A stretch of DNA of 5,053 nt from JALTID01 sp027004335 [NCBI: bacterium] (lineage in GTDB: Bacteria > JALSQH01). The stretch is taken from positions 1 to 5,053 of the forward strand of contig JALTID010000033.1 in assembly GCA_027004335.1 (NCBI GenBank), in the 5' to 3' direction. Each line of letters starts with the position of its first letter. Position 1 is the first letter of the stretch. Position numbers and translations under genes: made by a program. Under the pieces are notes generated by a model. The model saw only the letters and a list, made by a program, of their open reading frames with translations, did no database searches and had not been told where the DNA came from. Of this stretch, positions 1 to 5,053 are shown piece after piece.

Positions 1-2308
1 AAGTCTTGTTGTCATCTTGTTACTTTTTATTACTTCATGTGGAGGAAACAAAGAGAGAAAAGGAGAAACCTGTGCTCCTGGTGTTTACATTGAGGGGCAT
101 TCAGGTTCTACTATTCAGCTTCAGGAGGGCAAAATAAATACCCTTGTAGCTCAGGTAAACACATGCAAGCTCAAGGACAAAAACTTCACATACTCATGGT
201 ATCTTGATGACGGCGATCAACCAGTATCATCAACTAACAAATACGACTACATAAGTTGTAAATCAGATGTGGGAACACATAAGCTAAAAATAGTCGCAGC
301 AAGTATTGACTCTAACATTGTGTTGCAAAAAACATATACAGTGAAAGTGATTGAGGTACCCAATCCTCCCAAACCTTCCTGCTATGGGGATGCTATGAAC
401 ACCGTAAGAACAGGTTATGTTCAGGGATTCACCTCAGCGGTAAGCTGTCTTGAAAATTACTTGAAGGAGTATGTATGTGATGTTGATGCCAACTTTGCCG
501 CGGGATTGGGAAAAGAGGTCCTATTTCTAATGAGCATAGAAAATCTCTATAATAATCATACCAGTTTAACAGAAAAAGATATTAAATCCATCGGTGATAA
601 CACCATTATGCCCATGGTAAATCATTTTAAAGTTGTGATGGAAAAAGCCCCAAAGGATTGGTCCTTTTTTGAAGAAGGACTATATGACATTGTTGTTTTT
701 GACGGAAAAGAAAGGTACATGGGAAAATTTGATATATCACTCCATGGGGAATTTGATTTAGGGGAAATTTATTTTCTTGTATCTCAGGCAAGTGCTATGG
801 AAGGAGGGTACTATATGGCGACTGCATTTAACGGCCTCCTTGACCATTTTCTCAAGGTTCCCTTTGATTTCAGTATACAATCTGAAATCAAGAGATTTGT
901 GGGAAAAATGATTGATGATCCGAAATTTCTAACTTTTGCAGGAAGAGATGGTCAGGAGGGTAAGGAGAATCTACTCCTTGCCAGAGGTGCATTTATTGAT
1001 TCTGTTCATCTAATACAGGAGATGTTTGCGGAGATAAAATCAGAAACAGATGATCAGAGTGACGACCTGCTGAGATATTGGGATTGTGGCTCAGACGCCA
1101 TATGTCCACCAGCCAGCGAGTGCCCTGGAGGAGCTTCATGGATAGACCCGGTAAATGGTGACCCACCCGAGTATGATCCAAACAAATATAGCAGTTGTCA
1201 GGATGCAGGGAATGATTATGATGACAGGAATCACAATGGGCAGTGTGACGAAGGATGGCAGAAAACAGGGCCGGACAAAGATGGAACAGAATGTAATAAT
1301 AAATATGACGATGGAGAACCTCTCGGAACTGAGATACTTGGGTTCCCAGATTTTAAAGTTATCAACATAGCTTCTGATCTTTCTCAGATTCTTATTGCAC
1401 AAAACGAAATTGAGCTGAGTTTAATTGGTCCAGACCATCCTCTTGATTTTGATAGAATGGCGGGGATGCAGGAGGGAACAGTTAAAAGTGCTATGGATAC
1501 CATGGGACTCCCCTACCCTGAGGTGAGACTCAGTGAAGTTTTTCTTACCCCTACTGAGGCAAGATTATTAGTTCCACTCTACAGTATTTCCAAAAGATAC
1601 TTCATAATTGACAATGAATATGAGCCTTTTAAAGATACAGGATATGATGGATGCACAGATAAATATGAAGATGGAAATGGAGGATGTGTCTCGGATCCAT
1701 CACTTTCTCCCTACGACCCGATAAAAGACCCTGATCCGAACCACGATGATATTGATCTTTCTTGTGCTCCAACCTGTAATCAGAATGACGGTTACGACAA
1801 CGACGGAGATGGATGTATTGATGAGGATAATCACACTAAATTTGGAAATGTCCCCGGAGATATTGGAGCAGAAGGTAATCTTGTATTTGACTTCATAGAT
1901 GAAAATGGAAATGGAAAACATGATTCAGGTGAGAAATCAGAACCTTTTGAAGATATTGGAATTAATGGTGTCCCCGGATCTGCAGGAAATGGCAAGTGGG
2001 ATACAAAAGATATGACTCATACATGGCCCAATGGTTCAGATGTAGGACCTGTAACTGATGTCACAATGACTGACCCAAGAGACGGATGTGCACCATACGA
2101 CCCGGAAGGAGAATTAATCGATTTTTACTATCTCTTTTTCCCCGATCCAACATTTTCCAGGTTTTTAATATTAGATTGGAATCATAAGAACATAGATAAT
2201 GAGGATCTTAATGACCATGCAAAGCTTCACAGATTTGTTTCAAAAGCTTTCGATCTACTTCAACAGGTAGGGATTTATGATAATGGCGTCCACAAGCCGT
2301 GTAAATAG
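1..2308 (+). CDS. Large Cys-rich surface lipoprotein with Ig-like domain and EF-hand-like loops (5' partial)
   Basis: Function is unknown; it is probably a lipid-anchored envelope protein. The reading frame is open to the window edge (first full codon at base 2), and the start lies upstream. The visible residues form the end of a hydrophobic signal segment (SLVVILLLFITSC) whose lipobox Cys is coded at 38-40; Gly follows it, which by the E. coli rule would not retain it in the inner membrane. Numbering from the TTG at 17, residues 22-113 look like a beta-sandwich Ig/PKD-type domain with Cys50 and Cys81. Residues 120-165 are helical and Ala-rich with Cys122, Cys144 and Cys154. 'YWDCGSDAICPP' is at 354-365. 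EF-hand-like loops start at Asp403, Asp594 and Asp628, and the conserved core is 471-526. There are 20 cysteines, 11 of them absent from the downstream paralog. The 3' end overlaps the next gene by 26-32 bases. The reading frame and paralogy are clear; the role is not. Confidence 0.9.
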   Translation, partial: SLVVILLLFITSCGGNKERKGETCAPGVYIEGHSGSTIQLQEGKINTLVAQVNTCKLKDKNFTYSWYLDDGDQPVSSTNKYDYISCKSDVGTHKLKIVAASIDSNIVLQKTYTVKVIEVPNPPKPSCYGDAMNTVRTGYVQGFTSAVSCLENYLKEYVCDVDANFAAGLGKEVLFLMSIENLYNNHTSLTEKDIKSIGDNTIMPMVNHFKVVMEKAPKDWSFFEEGLYDIVVFDGKERYMGKFDISLHGEFDLGEIYFLVSQASAMEGGYYMATAFNGLLDHFLKVPFDFSIQSEIKRFVGKMIDDPKFLTFAGRDGQEGKENLLLARGAFIDSVHLIQEMFAEIKSETDDQSDDLLRYWDCGSDAICPPASECPGGASWIDPVNGDPPEYDPNKYSSCQDAGNDYDDRNHNGQCDEGWQKTGPDKDGTECNNKYDDGEPLGTEILGFPDFKVINIASDLSQILIAQNEIELSLIGPDHPLDFDRMAGMQEGTVKSAMDTMGLPYPEVRLSEVFLTPTEARLLVPLYSISKRYFIIDNEYEPFKDTGYDGCTDKYEDGNGGCVSDPSLSPYDPIKDPDPNHDDIDLSCAPTCNQNDGYDNDGDGCIDEDNHTKFGNVPGDIGAEGNLVFDFIDENGNGKHDSGEKSEPFEDIGINGVPGSAGNGKWDTKDMTHTWPNGSDVGPVTDVTMTDPRDGCAPYDPEGELIDFYYLFFPDPTFSRFLILDWNHKNIDNEDLNDHAKLHRFVSKAFDLLQQVGIYDNGVHKPCK
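80..355 (+). other. Ig/PKD-like beta domain in the first lipoprotein
   Basis: After the lipid-anchored Cys the protein shows alternating hydrophobic strands, a core Trp ('YSWYLDD') and a late 'VGTHKLKIVAAS' strand followed by 'YTVKVIE'. That is the usual order of strands in PKD and Ig-like surface modules. Cys50 and Cys81 match Cys65 and Cys93 of the paralog and could form a disulfide. The fold is inferred by eye, without a profile search. Confidence 0.5.
1223..1258 (+). other. EF-hand-like loop 1 of the first lipoprotein
   Basis: Residues 403-414 read DRNHNGQCDEGW. Asp/Asn occupy loop positions 1, 3, 5 and 9 and Gly position 6, as in EF-hand and dockerin-type calcium loops. The acidic residue expected at position 12 is replaced by Trp, and Cys410 sits at position 8, so affinity may be reduced. 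It aligns with the loop at Asp404 of the paralog ('DLNGNGRWNDSW'). Confidence 0.55.
1427..1594 (+). other. Conserved core of unknown function, first lipoprotein
   Basis: Residues 471-526 run from 'GPDHPLDFD' through 'EGT', 'PYPEVRLSE' and 'TP' to 'PLYSISK'. The same landmarks occur at the same spacing in the paralog at 3672-3836. This section has few Asp loops and no Cys, and looks like a compact fold set between the loop clusters. I know no family with this signature. Confidence 0.6.
1796..1831 (+). other. DNDGDG calcium-type loop in the first lipoprotein
   Basis: Residues 594-605 read DNDGDGCIDEDN, with Asp at positions 1, 3, 5 and 9, Gly at 6 and Ile at 8, a near-canonical EF-hand-type loop. 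It sits in the context 'NDGYDNDGDGCIDE', which is almost identical in the paralog. The fixed spacing and acidic ligands make metal binding likely; no flanking EF-hand helices are evident. Confidence 0.65.
1898..1933 (+). other. DENGNG EF-hand-like loop in the first lipoprotein
   Basis: Residues 628-639 read DENGNGKHDSGE. This is the best match in the protein to a full 12-residue loop: Asp1, Asn3, Asn5, Gly6, Asp9 and Glu12. The paralog has a degenerate version here (around Asp600, 'DTAPTNGKQDIGEK'), with two extra residues that would break canonical spacing. The site may therefore bind metal only in this copy. Confidence 0.6.
2268..2273 (+). promoter_or_regulatory. Probable ribosome binding site of the second lipoprotein gene
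   Basis: TAGGGA, within the purine-rich run AGGTAGGGA at 2265-2273, lies inside the last codons of the first lipoprotein gene. It is 9 bases before ATG 2283 and 3 bases before ATG 2277. The spacing favours 2283. Because the site is inside the upstream coding region, ribosomes finishing the first gene could re-initiate here. This is inferred from spacing only. Confidence 0.55.
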
Positions 2309-4463
2309 GAAGATTATTACTGGATTACTTCTTGTCCTTCTTTTAACGCTATCCGCGGGATGTGGAGGAGGCGAGTGTCAGCCGGGATTCTCTGTTACAT
2401 CTCCATCCTCCAGTAATGTAGAAATAATTGAGGGAAAAATCCGGAACTTTAGTTTCAACTTAAGGAGTTGTAGTGGAAAAATTTCTAAGATTAACTGGAA
2501 CCTTGATGATAAACCCTATGCTGAAGATTTAACCATGGTTACAATAGAGGGGTGTCCCGATCTGGAAGGTCAACACTCTCTGAAACTGGTCGTAAGAACA
2601 ACAAAAACCACAATTTCAAAATCATGGAAGATCAACATCGTTAACAAAGCTGATCCCGATAAACCTGAATGTTATGGAAAAGCACTTGATACTGTTCAAA
2701 GTGGTATTATAGGCGTTTCCTCATCAGAAAGTCCAACAGGCATGAATATGAGTGATGCTTATCAATGCTTTGAGGAGTATTTGAAAAAATCCCCATGCAA
2801 TCTTGAAGCGAACATGGCAGCAGGAATAGCTCATCTTTCACTGACTCTTGCCAATGCACCTATGCATCTTGCTCTTGCCTTTTCCGCATCTAACAACGGG
2901 GTAGAATCTTTTATTCAAAGTGAGATTGATCCCTTGATCACTTATTTTGGAACAGTGGCGGAGCATGGTAATTCAAGATTTACTTTTCCTGTAAATAACC
3001 TGCTCATCAATATACCAATAGCTGATCTCACATTTAATCTCTCTGGAGAGTGGGGCGTAGAAGAAGCAAAAACTCTCACTTCTCTACTTACTACTTTAAA
3101 AGGCTTACTTTATACTGGGCTTGCTTACAATGGATTTTATGAATTACCTCTGATAATGATAGGGAAGAATCCTGAGAAGTCATTGATTTCGCGTATTAAA
3201 ATAGATGAAACTTTCCTCATGCTTACAGGCAAAAATGGAGAAAAGGGTAAAGAGTACCTTACCAAAGCACAGCAACTTCTTGTACAGGGTTTAACTGAAA
3301 TGGTAGATGCAATACTTTCCGTGGAATCAGAACCAGATCCAGTTAATCATGTTATTAAATACTGGGATTGTGGAAAAGATGCAGTCTGCCCACCAAAGTA
3401 TTCAGATTATCCCGATGGAGACCCGGCTGAGCCTTACGAAGATTCCAATCATAATGGTCGGTATGATCAGGGGGAAAAATATGAGGATCTCAATGGCAAT
3501 GGCAGATGGAATGACTCCTGGGAAAATATTGGACCTGACGAAGGAGAAGATGATGGTCAATATACTGACGGAGAGCCTATCGGTACTGATATAATAGCAG
3601 GACACAGAATAAGGTTCTCTGCTGGAACAAGGCTTATTAATATTATCACAACGGTGAGAGATAATATAAAGGGACCAGATCCGCTCAACCTTGATAAATT
3701 CTTCGGAGTCCCTGAAGGAACCATGCGAAAACAATTTAATCAGTTTGGAATTCCCTATCCTGAAATAAGGCTCTCAGAATTTTATGTAACTCCCAGTAAC
3801 TTAAGAAACATGCTCCCACTTTATTCAATATCAAAAGAGAAGTTTTTCAATCAACCTGAAATGGAACCCTACAAAGATTGGGGTGTGGATCAGCTTAAAG
3901 ATGAAGATGAGCCATACTATGATCCAGCAACCAACCCGGATCCTGATCACGACGATTATGACCTCCAGACAAATATGAATGACGGGTATGATAATGATGG
4001 TGATGGATATATAGATGAACGCGATCCCAATGGTGATTACGGTCTTGAAGGAAATCAGAAATACGACTATCTTGATACAGCACCTACCAATGGTAAACAG
4101 GATATAGGAGAAAAATGTGAACCCTTCTACGATGTGGGAATTACCACACCCAATGGTATCTACGGAAAAGACAATGGAGTATGGGATGAGCTTGACACAG
4201 ATCACGCGTGGCCTAAAGGGGATGATGTAGGAGGACCTGAAGTTAATATAGATATTGATCCAAAAGATGGAACCACCAAAGATAAAGATCAGCGGTTAAT
4301 TGATGAATTTTATCTGTTTTTCCCCGATGCCACATTCAGTGGTGTATTAACATTTCCTGACCCCACTGTGAATGTGGATGGCAAAACTCTCACAAGAAAT
4401 GCAGAGTTATTTAGATTCATCGGCAAGATGAAAGAAAACGCTTATTATTTCTTCGGATATTAA
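2283..4463 (+). CDS. Surface lipoprotein with Ig-like domain and EF-hand-like loops, paralog of the upstream gene
   Basis: Function is unknown; this is a complete exported lipoprotein. Two ATGs are possible, at 2277 and 2283. I chose 2283 because the purine-rich TAGGGA at 2268-2273 lies 9 bases before it but only 3 before 2277. Numbering from 2277, there is an Arg/Lys n-region, a Leu-rich core and lipobox LSAGC with Cys29 followed by Gly. Next come an Ig/PKD-like domain (37-123, Cys65 and Cys93), an Ala-rich helical stretch (131-190, 'NLEANMAAGIAHL') and 'YWDCGKDAVCPP' at 362-373. Two adjacent DxNxNG loops begin at Asp389 and Asp404. The conserved core is 466-520, a DNDGDG loop is at 572-583, and the end block is 673-688. 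It aligns with the upstream gene along nearly its whole length, apart from a diverged stretch around residues 190-275. It has 10 cysteines, 9 of them shared with the upstream copy. Overlap with that gene suggests coupled translation. Confidence 0.93.
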   Translation: MASTSRVNRKIITGLLLVLLLTLSAGCGGGECQPGFSVTSPSSSNVEIIEGKIRNFSFNLRSCSGKISKINWNLDDKPYAEDLTMVTIEGCPDLEGQHSLKLVVRTTKTTISKSWKINIVNKADPDKPECYGKALDTVQSGIIGVSSSESPTGMNMSDAYQCFEEYLKKSPCNLEANMAAGIAHLSLTLANAPMHLALAFSASNNGVESFIQSEIDPLITYFGTVAEHGNSRFTFPVNNLLINIPIADLTFNLSGEWGVEEAKTLTSLLTTLKGLLYTGLAYNGFYELPLIMIGKNPEKSLISRIKIDETFLMLTGKNGEKGKEYLTKAQQLLVQGLTEMVDAILSVESEPDPVNHVIKYWDCGKDAVCPPKYSDYPDGDPAEPYEDSNHNGRYDQGEKYEDLNGNGRWNDSWENIGPDEGEDDGQYTDGEPIGTDIIAGHRIRFSAGTRLINIITTVRDNIKGPDPLNLDKFFGVPEGTMRKQFNQFGIPYPEIRLSEFYVTPSNLRNMLPLYSISKEKFFNQPEMEPYKDWGVDQLKDEDEPYYDPATNPDPDHDDYDLQTNMNDGYDNDGDGYIDERDPNGDYGLEGNQKYDYLDTAPTNGKQDIGEKCEPFYDVGITTPNGIYGKDNGVWDELDTDHAWPKGDDVGGPEVNIDIDPKDGTTKDKDQRLIDEFYLFFPDATFSGVLTFPDPTVNVDGKTLTRNAELFRFIGKMKENAYYFFGY
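2385..2645 (+). other. Ig/PKD-like beta domain in the second lipoprotein
   Basis: This is the counterpart of the domain at 80-355. The core Trp is in 'INWNLDD', and a 'GQHSLKLVVR' strand precedes a final 'SWKINIVNK' strand. Cys65 and Cys93 are at matching positions. Outside these landmarks the residues differ widely between the copies, so this domain has diverged more than the C-terminal half. Confidence 0.5.
3441..3530 (+). repeat. Tandem pair of 15-residue DxNxNG loops in the second lipoprotein
   Basis: Two adjacent units of 15 codons (3441-3485 and 3486-3530) encode DSNHNGRYDQGE and DLNGNGRWNDSW at matching phase. The first is a full EF-hand-type loop ending in Glu. The second lacks the Glu at position 12 but has one at 13. 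The nucleotide copies are well diverged, so the duplication is old. The upstream paralog keeps only the second unit as a clear loop. Confidence 0.65.
3672..3836 (+). other. Conserved core of unknown function, second lipoprotein
   Basis: Residues 466-520 repeat the core of the upstream copy: 'GPDPLNLD', 'EGT', 'PYPEIRLSE', 'TP' and 'PLYSISK'. It is one residue shorter than the other copy, at the start ('GPDPL' against 'GPDHPL'). The strong match in a region without metal loops suggests it carries the family's specific function. Confidence 0.6.
3990..4025 (+). other. DNDGDG calcium-type loop in the second lipoprotein
   Basis: Residues 572-583 (numbered from ATG 2277) read DNDGDGYIDERD. Asp is at positions 1, 3, 5, 9 and 12, Gly at 6 and Ile at 8. 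It is the counterpart of the loop at 1796-1831, with Tyr in place of Cys at position 7. This is the best conserved metal-type loop between the two proteins. Confidence 0.65.
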
Positions 4464-4464
4464 A

Positions 4465-5053
4465 TTACTCTTTGAAAAGTGCCTGATAATACAATTTAGC
4501 AAGCTGGTTATTAGGAAATTCTAAAATTATCTCTTTAAATACCTCCTTAGATTCCTCTTTTTCTCCCATTGCATAATAAACAAGGCCCAAATTGATATAA
4601 GCCTGTTGATATTTTGGGTTTATTTTGAGAGCTTTTTTCAAATGCTCAATAGCTTTATCATACTCCCCTATTTCTTTATATGCCATTGCTATCTTATTTC
4701 TGATATCTGCAAAATCTGGTCTTAATTTTATTGCATTGTTGTACTCATCAACTGCCTCCTTGAAAAGCCCCAAATCCACATAAATATCAGCTATCTGCAG
4801 GTGAAGATTGGCAAGTTTTGCTCTGACATGAGCATCTTTTATCCTCTGATCCCCAACCTTCACTTTCGTTCCCTGAAGTGCTTTTTCATACGCTTCTCTT
4901 GCCTTCTCATACTCTCCGATGTCACTGTAAACTATAGCTAAATTGAGAGCTGCTTCCACATACCCCTGATTGATAGAAAGAGCCTTCTCAAGGTATATCC
5001 TCGCTCTCTCTATATCACCCTCCATCTGGTAGATCACTCCAAGCATGTTAAAA
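4465..5053 (-). CDS. Tetratricopeptide-repeat (TPR) protein, N-terminus beyond the window
   Basis: This is a TPR protein, a helical-repeat scaffold that usually binds other proteins; its partner is unknown. Numbering from the Met coded at 5044-5046, repeats lie at about 1-28, 29-62, 78-111, 112-145 and 146-179. Each shows the TPR pattern of a small or large hydrophobic pair, G-Y/F--A and a late Pro, for example 'IGEYDKAIEHLKKALKINP'. About 15 residues (63-77, Lys/Asp-rich) separate repeats 2 and 3. The Met at 5044-5046 is probably not the start: the frame stays open to the edge, and the two preceding residues (Phe, Asn) fit TPR positions 4-5, so the first repeat begins outside. No signal peptide or membrane segment is visible in this part. 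Its stop codon is one base from the convergent lipoprotein stop. Many TPR families match this pattern, so no specific name is justified. Confidence 0.93.
   Translation of the reverse strand, partial: FNMLGVIYQMEGDIERARIYLEKALSINQGYVEAALNLAIVYSDIGEYEKAREAYEKALQGTKVKVGDQRIKDAHVRAKLANLHLQIADIYVDLGLFKEAVDEYNNAIKLRPDFADIRNKIAMAYKEIGEYDKAIEHLKKALKINPKYQQAYINLGLVYYAMGEKEESKEVFKEIILEFPNNQLAKLYYQALFKE

What the first reader, a model, noticed from the sequence alone, without database searches (positions are those of the whole stretch)
1..4463. Tandem pair of overlapping paralogous lipoprotein genes of an unrecognised family
Both proteins share the order lipobox, Ig-like domain, helical section, YWDCG junction, Asp-loop half, conserved core and 'LIDxxYLFFPDxTFS' end. 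Nine cysteines match. Retention of two diverged but complete copies in one overlapping unit suggests distinct, linked roles, such as a two-part surface assembly. I cannot name the family.
Basis: partly seen in the sequence, partly recalled or inferred. Interest (0 to 1): 0.6.

Follow-up and report, generated by a model that had tools for sequence, protein, structure and literature searches.

The report
Unnamed three-part bacterial lipoprotein module
The two neighbouring genes are real, related lipoprotein genes of a family that the databases searched here do not name; elsewhere the gene usually stands alone beside an unrelated surface-type lipoprotein gene, which points to an undescribed three-protein envelope module shared by several little-known bacterial groups.

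Summary
Genes A (window 2-2308, start cut by the contig end) and B (2277-4463) overlap by 32 bases and encode lipoproteins aligning over 754 columns at 34% identity, with nine shared cysteines and the stated order of parts. No Pfam, NCBIfam, PHROGs or PDB-sequence entry matches them full length.

The overlapping pair recurs in the one related genome of the same family (G001), but nine other loci hold a single gene. In eight of these the next gene is a 1,214-1,280-residue lipoprotein with chitobiase-C-terminal-like repeats and an LVIVD beta-propeller; in three a ~420-residue lipoprotein follows. In 386 sampled genomes all three components were found in the same six; a seventh has component one only. 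In G000 and G001 components two and three sit together elsewhere.

A and B are thus a doubled first component of a wider three-lipoprotein module, whose helical domain belongs to a larger, multi-copy superfamily (19 of 386 genomes). Favoured mechanism: an outer-membrane lipoprotein assembly that binds an external ligand, with a TPR-like solenoid stiffened by acidic, probably Ca2+-binding loops. This function is inferred, not shown.

The parts
2..2308 (+). gene A, lipoprotein, 768 residues shown, 5' end cut by the contig
   Evidence: ortholog G001:C180 (L025:3705-6035 -) 77% identical
26..40 (+). A: lipobox-like FITSC
   Evidence: Cys conserved in 12 of 12 rows that have the N-terminus
71..355 (+). 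A: Ig/PKD-like domain (approximate)
   Evidence: PF00801 E 0.053, below cutoff; fold by alignment with B
374..1096 (+). A: helical (TPR-like) domain, first part, ending at YWDCG.D
   Evidence: E 1.3e-91; A is itself a row of that profile
1097..1321 (+). A: Asp-loop block 1 (approximate)
1352..1594 (+). A: second helical part / conserved core, with the LPYPEVRLSE and LVPLYS motifs (approximate)
1607..2101 (+). A: Asp-loop block 2 (approximate)
   Evidence: similar module in a lipoprotein esterase
2114..2158 (+). A: LIDFYYLFFPDPTFS end motif
2277..2308 (+). overlap of A and B; a similar overlap is present in G001
2277..4463 (+). gene B, lipoprotein, 728 residues
   Evidence: ortholog G001:C180 (L025:1526-3715 -) 66% identical
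2349..2363 (+). B: lipobox-like LSAGC
2385..2642 (+). B: Ig-like domain (residues 37-122)
   Evidence: model; best VIA Z 11.0 to 4r5o_A, 88 aligned, rmsd 2.5
2664..3380 (+). B: helical (TPR-like) domain, first part
3390..3611 (+). B: Asp-loop block 1, inserted between the two helical parts
3627..3812 (+). B: second helical part
   Evidence: model pLDDT about 88
3858..4292 (+). B: Asp-loop block 2, low model confidence
4296..4340 (+). B: LIDEFYLFFPDATFS end motif
4465..5052 (-). convergent TPR-repeat protein, probably not part of the module; similar neighbour in G001

Best explanation
A and B are two diverged copies of the first component of a three-lipoprotein cell-envelope module. Component 1 (A/B) is an outer-membrane-anchored lipoprotein: an Ig-like spacer, then a TPR-like helical solenoid carrying two acidic-loop blocks that probably bind Ca2+. 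Component 2 is a larger lipoprotein with beta-sandwich repeats and an LVIVD beta-propeller. Component 3 is a ~420-residue lipoprotein without a named family. They most likely form one complex on the outside of the outer membrane that recognises or holds an external ligand, with the solenoid as scaffold and the propeller as binding face. In the window's lineage component 1 is doubled and components 2+3 are encoded at another locus; B, which changes faster, may have taken a second role. Shown: homology, order of parts, gene order, co-occurrence. Inferred: lipidation, surface position, Ca2+ binding, complex formation, ligand binding.
For: Component 2 lies directly downstream on the same strand in 8 of 9 single-copy loci; Pfam CHB_HEX_C_1, Fn3_assoc and LVIVD above cutoff in the 4 of 8 full-length partners scanned and in the shorter G001 one. 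Component 3 follows in L026, L033 and L034, and follows component 2 in G001:C172; in G000 it lies beside the C-terminal piece of component 2 on C183. Same 386 sampled genomes: component 1 strong (E 2.3e-195 or better) in 7; component 3 nearly full-length in 6, all among those 7 (a seventh genome, G151, matches only positions 144-329); component 2 including its N-terminal half in the same 6, while the other 9 genomes at 1e-40 match only its propeller. In G070, G211 and G341 component 3 lies on a different contig from component 1, so linkage alone does not explain the co-occurrence. Fisher p 1.6e-12 for components 1 and 3, ignoring kinship. The first cysteine is conserved in all three: 12 of 12 rows with an N-terminus, 8 of 8, 8 of 8. 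Some superfamily members neighbour outer-membrane barrels: one clear, one weak. LVIVD repeats were described from cell-surface proteins (PMC2447325, title and an abstract passage).
Against: No functional datum exists. The single copy in G049 (84% complete) has no component 3 and only a 2.3e-4 partial match to component 2, so component 1 may exist alone. Kinship inflates the co-occurrence: the six genomes come from three sampled lineages. The profile of component 3 (A4) was built from genes found by adjacency. In some searches at most two first-look candidates per genome were scored (four), so absences are not firm. A strict lipobox pattern fails in 4 of 12 rows. The Asp-loop pattern is thin in some members (1 in G049, 2 in three others). 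The helical fold match is weak (best Foldseek E 0.048; VIA Z 8.5). Outer-membrane sorting rules are from E. coli (recalled) and untested in these phyla.
Confidence: 0.4

Rival explanations
1. Transport accessory: component 1 is a TPR-type lipoprotein that hands a substrate to an outer-membrane barrel, as SusD-like or TatT-like lipoproteins do (comparison recalled).
For: In the wider superfamily one member overlaps a TonB-dependent receptor gene (L123) and one is followed by two proteins with Alginate_exp matches below cutoff (L083). Helical TPR-like domain.
Against: I saw no barrel or transporter gene immediately beside A/B or the single-copy genes, judged mostly by eye; the conserved neighbours are other lipoproteins. 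The upstream side of the window and of L040 is unseen.
Confidence: 0.25
2. The A/B pair itself is a two-subunit assembly specific to the window's lineage, with B as a specialised partner of A.
For: Pair, order and overlap (32 bases here, 26 in G001) kept in two genera; both copies complete in G001 and under constraint (dN 0.16 for A, 0.27 for B; dS could not be estimated, read as saturated); orthologs form 100/100 clades.
Against: Nine single-copy loci elsewhere; a tandem duplication with separate, non-interacting roles gives the same pattern. Whether A and B arose by one duplication is open: path 2.84 between them, as long as to other phyla; a single clade is not rejected, p-AU 0.167.
Confidence: 0.2
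3. Periplasmic or cell-wall structural scaffold lipoproteins, without an external ligand.
For: Superfamily members are numerous per genome (at least 7 in G000, 6 in G001), and the superfamily members outside the family that were scanned against Pfam showed no catalytic domain hit (3, 9).
Against: Ig, chitobiase-C-terminal-like and LVIVD domains are typical of exported or surface proteins; acidic loops suit a Ca2+-rich outside (inference).
Confidence: 0.15

Closest known systems
TPR-repeat lipoproteins (Pfam TPR clan; e.g. PF13414)
   Same: One of nine superfamily relatives scanned carries a TPR above cutoff (L123, 6.3e-7); the domain model is a helical array with weak TPR-type matches
   Different: A and B themselves give no TPR hit; a beta element and acidic loops interrupt the helices; Ig domain in front
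PKD / Ig-like domain surface proteins
   Same: B residues 37-122 fold as an Ig-like sandwich; the family profile matches phage T4 Hoc (whole-sequence E 2.6e-7) and collagenase PKD domains (0.018-0.032)
   Different: Only one of several domains; PF00801 below its cutoff
Thrombospondin type 3 / EF-hand-like Asp loops (recalled); NCBIfam NF033662 acid_disulf_rpt
   Same: DxNxNGxxDxGE and DNDGDGxxDE loops
   Different: NF033662 far below cutoff (20.5 against 41 bits); loops lie as insertions in a helical protein and in an esterase, not as long tandem arrays
LVIVD-repeat and CHB_HEX_C_1/Fn3_assoc surface proteins (component 2)
   Same: Domains above Pfam cutoffs in 4 of 4 partners scanned, of 8
   Different: The pairing with a component-1 lipoprotein did not appear in the listings of the four literature searches

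Membership tests
TPR family | TPR motif detectable in the protein | tested here: not met
   No TPR hit in A or B; above cutoff in 1 of 9 distant relatives
TPR family | TPR-type superhelix fold | tested here: inconclusive
   Domain model pLDDT 80.6; best Foldseek E 0.048 (TPR superhelix 8chy); VIA Z 8.5 (4hot_A, 118 aligned, rmsd 3.5) and 7.8 (MamA 3as4, 101 aligned, rmsd 2.9), under the level the tool calls telling for helical folds
PKD/Ig-like domain | Ig-like beta sandwich | tested here: met
   VIA Z 11.0 to 4r5o_A, 88 aligned, rmsd 2.5; Z 9.1 to collagenase PKD 4jrw_A, 85 aligned, rmsd 2.8
PKD (PF00801) | Score above Pfam cutoff | tested here: not met
   14 bits against 23.5 in A, no hit in B
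Bacterial lipoprotein | Hydrophobic N-terminus followed by a lipobox cysteine | tested here: met
   FITSC in A, LSAGC in B; Cys in 12 of 12 rows, strict pattern in 8 of 12 (pattern recalled). Lipidation itself not testable here
Calcium-binding Asp-loop proteins | Repeated [DN]x[DN]x[DN]G loops | tested here: met
   3 in A, 3 in B, shuffle means 0.30 and 0.25, shuffle maximum 3; 1 to 4 in the other 11 rows
Calcium-binding Asp-loop proteins | Ca2+ actually bound | not testable with these tools
   needs binding assay
Obligate paralog-pair system | Homologs occur as adjacent pairs | tested here: not met
   2 loci with pairs (G000, G001), 9 loci single, one of them cut upstream
SusD-like / TatT-like transport lipoprotein | Own gene next to its barrel or transporter | tested here: inconclusive
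   None seen by eye beside the family gene, but not every neighbour was scanned and some contigs are cut; one clear and one weak case among distant superfamily members
LecA/PA-IL-type lectin (component 3, resemblance recalled) | Sequence match to the lectin family or to solved lectins | tested here: inconclusive
   No Pfam lectin hit in 5 members, no PDB sequence at E up to 10; fold not predicted

The most novel reading that the evidence does not exclude
A Ca2+-dependent, three-lipoprotein surface recognition machine, shared by at least three (perhaps four) phylum-level lineages of mostly uncultured bacteria, whose scaffold belongs to an unnamed multi-copy lipoprotein superfamily built on a TPR-like solenoid; in the window's lineage the scaffold subunit has split into two specialised copies read from overlapping genes.
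Probability: 0.3. Interest if true: 0.6.

Novelty: new variant of a known kind. Interest (0 to 1): 0.45.

Why it matters
It turns two anonymous proteins into the visible part of a module with defined partners, so that function can be tested by co-purification and localisation. It also exposes a multi-copy lipoprotein superfamily that Pfam does not name in the members scanned, and a portable acidic-loop module that occurs as an insertion in an unrelated protein of the same genomes.

Tried and rejected
Paralog pairing as a family rule was tested and rejected: 2 paired loci against 9 single ones. Phage or plasmid origin: no tblastn match of A in either collection and no PHROGs hit for A or B. RNA features: no Rfam match at gathering score and no tRNA in the window. 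The promoter count equals shuffles (15 against 15.4); terminators 5 against 3.4. Whole-protein fold search was filled by the Ig domain, so the helical domain was folded alone; its matches stayed weak and TPR-like, with 14-3-3 and other helical proteins at similar Z. That component 3 is a LecA-type lectin came from memory and found no support. The first genome-contig scan with B alone found nothing; the alignment scan, which rests on two short peptide patterns and so can miss members, gave ten loci, three of which (L032, L038, L039) are the same DNA as G001, G049 and G015. Literature: four searches gave nothing on the family in their listings; of the papers listed I saw only one passage of the abstract of PMC2447325. 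Which copy, A or B, is nearer the single-copy type could not be resolved: inner branches are weak and long rows are present. The weak G168 match (1.3e-16) and the diverged G015:C18 protein (L027, E 2.1e-12) were not counted as family members and are not in the 13-row alignment.
Full report
What is there. The window is one whole contig (G000:C33, 5053 bases). Gene A is open at the contig start and ends at 2308; gene B runs 2277-4463; a TPR-repeat gene converges from the other strand and stops at 4465. A and B align over 754 columns at 34% identity, E 3e-118, and share nine aligned cysteines. An overlap with the same pair of ATGs is present in G001, the only other held genome of the same phylum. 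Ortholog identities are 77% (A) and 66% (B), with dN 0.16 and 0.27; dS could not be estimated and is read as saturated. Both copies are therefore kept as coding genes, B with the faster change.

Family status. A and B have no Pfam hit above cutoff (A: PKD 0.053; B: none), no NCBIfam hit above cutoff, no PHROGs hit and no full-length PDB sequence relative; in the PDB search only the Ig part matches, best phage T4 Hoc at 2.6e-7. In NCBIfam 2 of the 13 family members reach E 0.01, with the one model NF033662. An alignment search of the 84,980-species collection gave 10 loci, of which three repeat genomes already found; it rests on two short peptide patterns and can miss members. Together with the window I read 13 members in 11 loci: G000 and G001 with two each, nine loci with one each (L026, L028, L033, L034, L035, L036, L037, L040, L041; L040 is cut at its 5' end). 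In the 386 genomes sampled across the domain, 8 match at 1e-15, one of them weakly. The family is thus rare and patchy in that sample. By the tool's holdings or record names it occurs in the window's phylum (2 genomes held), those of G015 and G049 (1 held each) and Calescibacteriota; L033 and L034 form a further group whose NCBI labels are 'bacterium' and 'Proteobacteria bacterium' and whose phylum I did not establish.

Pairs or singles. Only G000 and G001 hold tandem pairs. In eight of the nine single loci the next gene on the same strand encodes a 1,214-1,280-residue lipoprotein-like protein, homologous across all eight, with CHB_HEX_C_1, Fn3_assoc and LVIVD domains in the four scanned. The ninth, G049 (L028), is followed by a minus-strand kinase-like ORF (named by eye, not scanned); its genome, 84% complete, has no component 3 and only a 2.3e-4 partial match to component 2. 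In L026, L033 and L034 a third, ~420-residue protein with an N-terminal cysteine follows. In G001 a shorter component 2 and component 3 lie together on C172. In the three Calescibacteriota-type genomes searched (G070, G211, G341) component 3 is on another contig.

Co-occurrence. Over the same 386 genomes, strong component 1 is in 7 and nearly full-length component 3 in 6, all among those 7; a seventh genome, G151, matches part of component 3 only. Component 2 with its N-terminal half is in the same 6; the nine further genomes that reach 1e-40 match only over the propeller part. Fisher p for components 1 and 3 is 1.6e-12, which ignores that the six come from three sampled lineages (f1, f15, f70), and that the component-3 profile was built from four loci, three of them chosen by adjacency to component 1 and the fourth by adjacency to component 2. 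At most two first-look candidates per genome were scored and four, so absences are not firm. The unlinked finds in G070, G211 and G341 are the cleaner evidence, but they are one lineage.

Anatomy. The AlphaFold model of B (13 sequences, mean pLDDT 72.6, pTM 0.70) shows an Ig-like sandwich (37-122), a helical section (133-350), a less confident acidic block, more helices (451-512), and a mostly low-confidence acidic C-terminal part. The Ig part aligns to many Ig folds (Z 11.0 to 4r5o_A). The helical part alone (pLDDT 80.6, pTM 0.80) gives only weak TPR-like matches. By sequence the helical domain extends to a larger set: 19 of 386 genomes at 1e-5, often with several copies (at least 7 in G000, 6 in G001, 6 in G015, 7 in G315; lower bounds, as at most seven candidates per genome were scored). 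The profile A6 used there already held three such relatives. The link between the family and two of them is E 1e-14 by profile comparison over 123 columns. Of nine relatives scanned one has a TPR above cutoff; in most of the 24 relatives printed variants of the motifs F..P...LR.LLP and Y..F.DP.F.G can be seen by eye. In L083 and L082 the helical domain starts soon after the lipobox cysteine, leaving no room for an Ig domain.

Acidic loops as a portable module. A lipoprotein esterase in G000 (C94) and G001 (C97) carries a similar loop module (G001 protein against A: 31% over 143 columns, 6e-10). In both, the esterase profile matches in swapped order: the N-terminal piece matches profile positions 105-157 or 115-157 and the C-terminal piece 1-113 or 1-115; the G001 N-terminal match is just under the Pfam cutoff. 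The loops lie between the two, that is at the joint of an apparently circularly permuted hydrolase.

Origin of the two copies. In the tree A and B each pair with their G001 ortholog at 100/100; the path between A and B (2.84) is as long as to other phyla; A groups with G049 at only 80/80, and a joint A+B clade is not rejected (p-AU 0.167). An old duplication in the lineage, or a second copy gained from elsewhere, are both open.

How it may work. Conserved N-terminal cysteines in all three proteins, export-type domains and gene order suggest a lipoprotein complex of the cell envelope (inference). Most likely it stands on the outer membrane and binds an external ligand, with component 1 as a loop-stiffened scaffold and the component-2 propeller as a binding face. 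A transport accessory role is the main rival, because one distant superfamily member neighbours a TonB-dependent receptor and another two weakly matched barrels. No step of the function is shown.

Verdict.

Noticed in passing
L029:9080-10933 (-) in G000:C94 and L031:10824-12686 (-) in G001:C97: Lipoprotein esterases (PF00756) whose two halves match the profile in swapped order, with an acidic-loop module at the joint: apparently circularly permuted.
   Followed up: partly
L116:7443-9371 (G000:C85) and L119:1783-3744 (G001:C255): Another paralog kind, next to a rod-shape-determining-like gene (named by eye), with the helical domain, its own acidic loops and the YYFFFPDPSF / YYLFFPDPTF end.
   Followed up: partly
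L123:6918-8786 and 4871-6931 (-) in G015:C28: Superfamily lipoprotein gene overlapping the start of a TonB-dependent receptor gene, a hint at a transport role for some members.
   Followed up: no
L083:3736-9151 (G001:C62): Superfamily lipoprotein followed by two proteins with Alginate_exp (barrel) matches below cutoff.
   Followed up: no
L028 / L038 (G049:C340): Single-copy family gene on a 65% GC contig of a MAG named Dadabacteria, without components 2 and 3; whether the contig belongs to the genome was not checked.
   Followed up: no
L030:7007-9037 (-) (G000:C93): A 677-residue protein with a lipoprotein-like start and similar DxNxNGxxDxGE loops; not scanned against Pfam.
   Followed up: no
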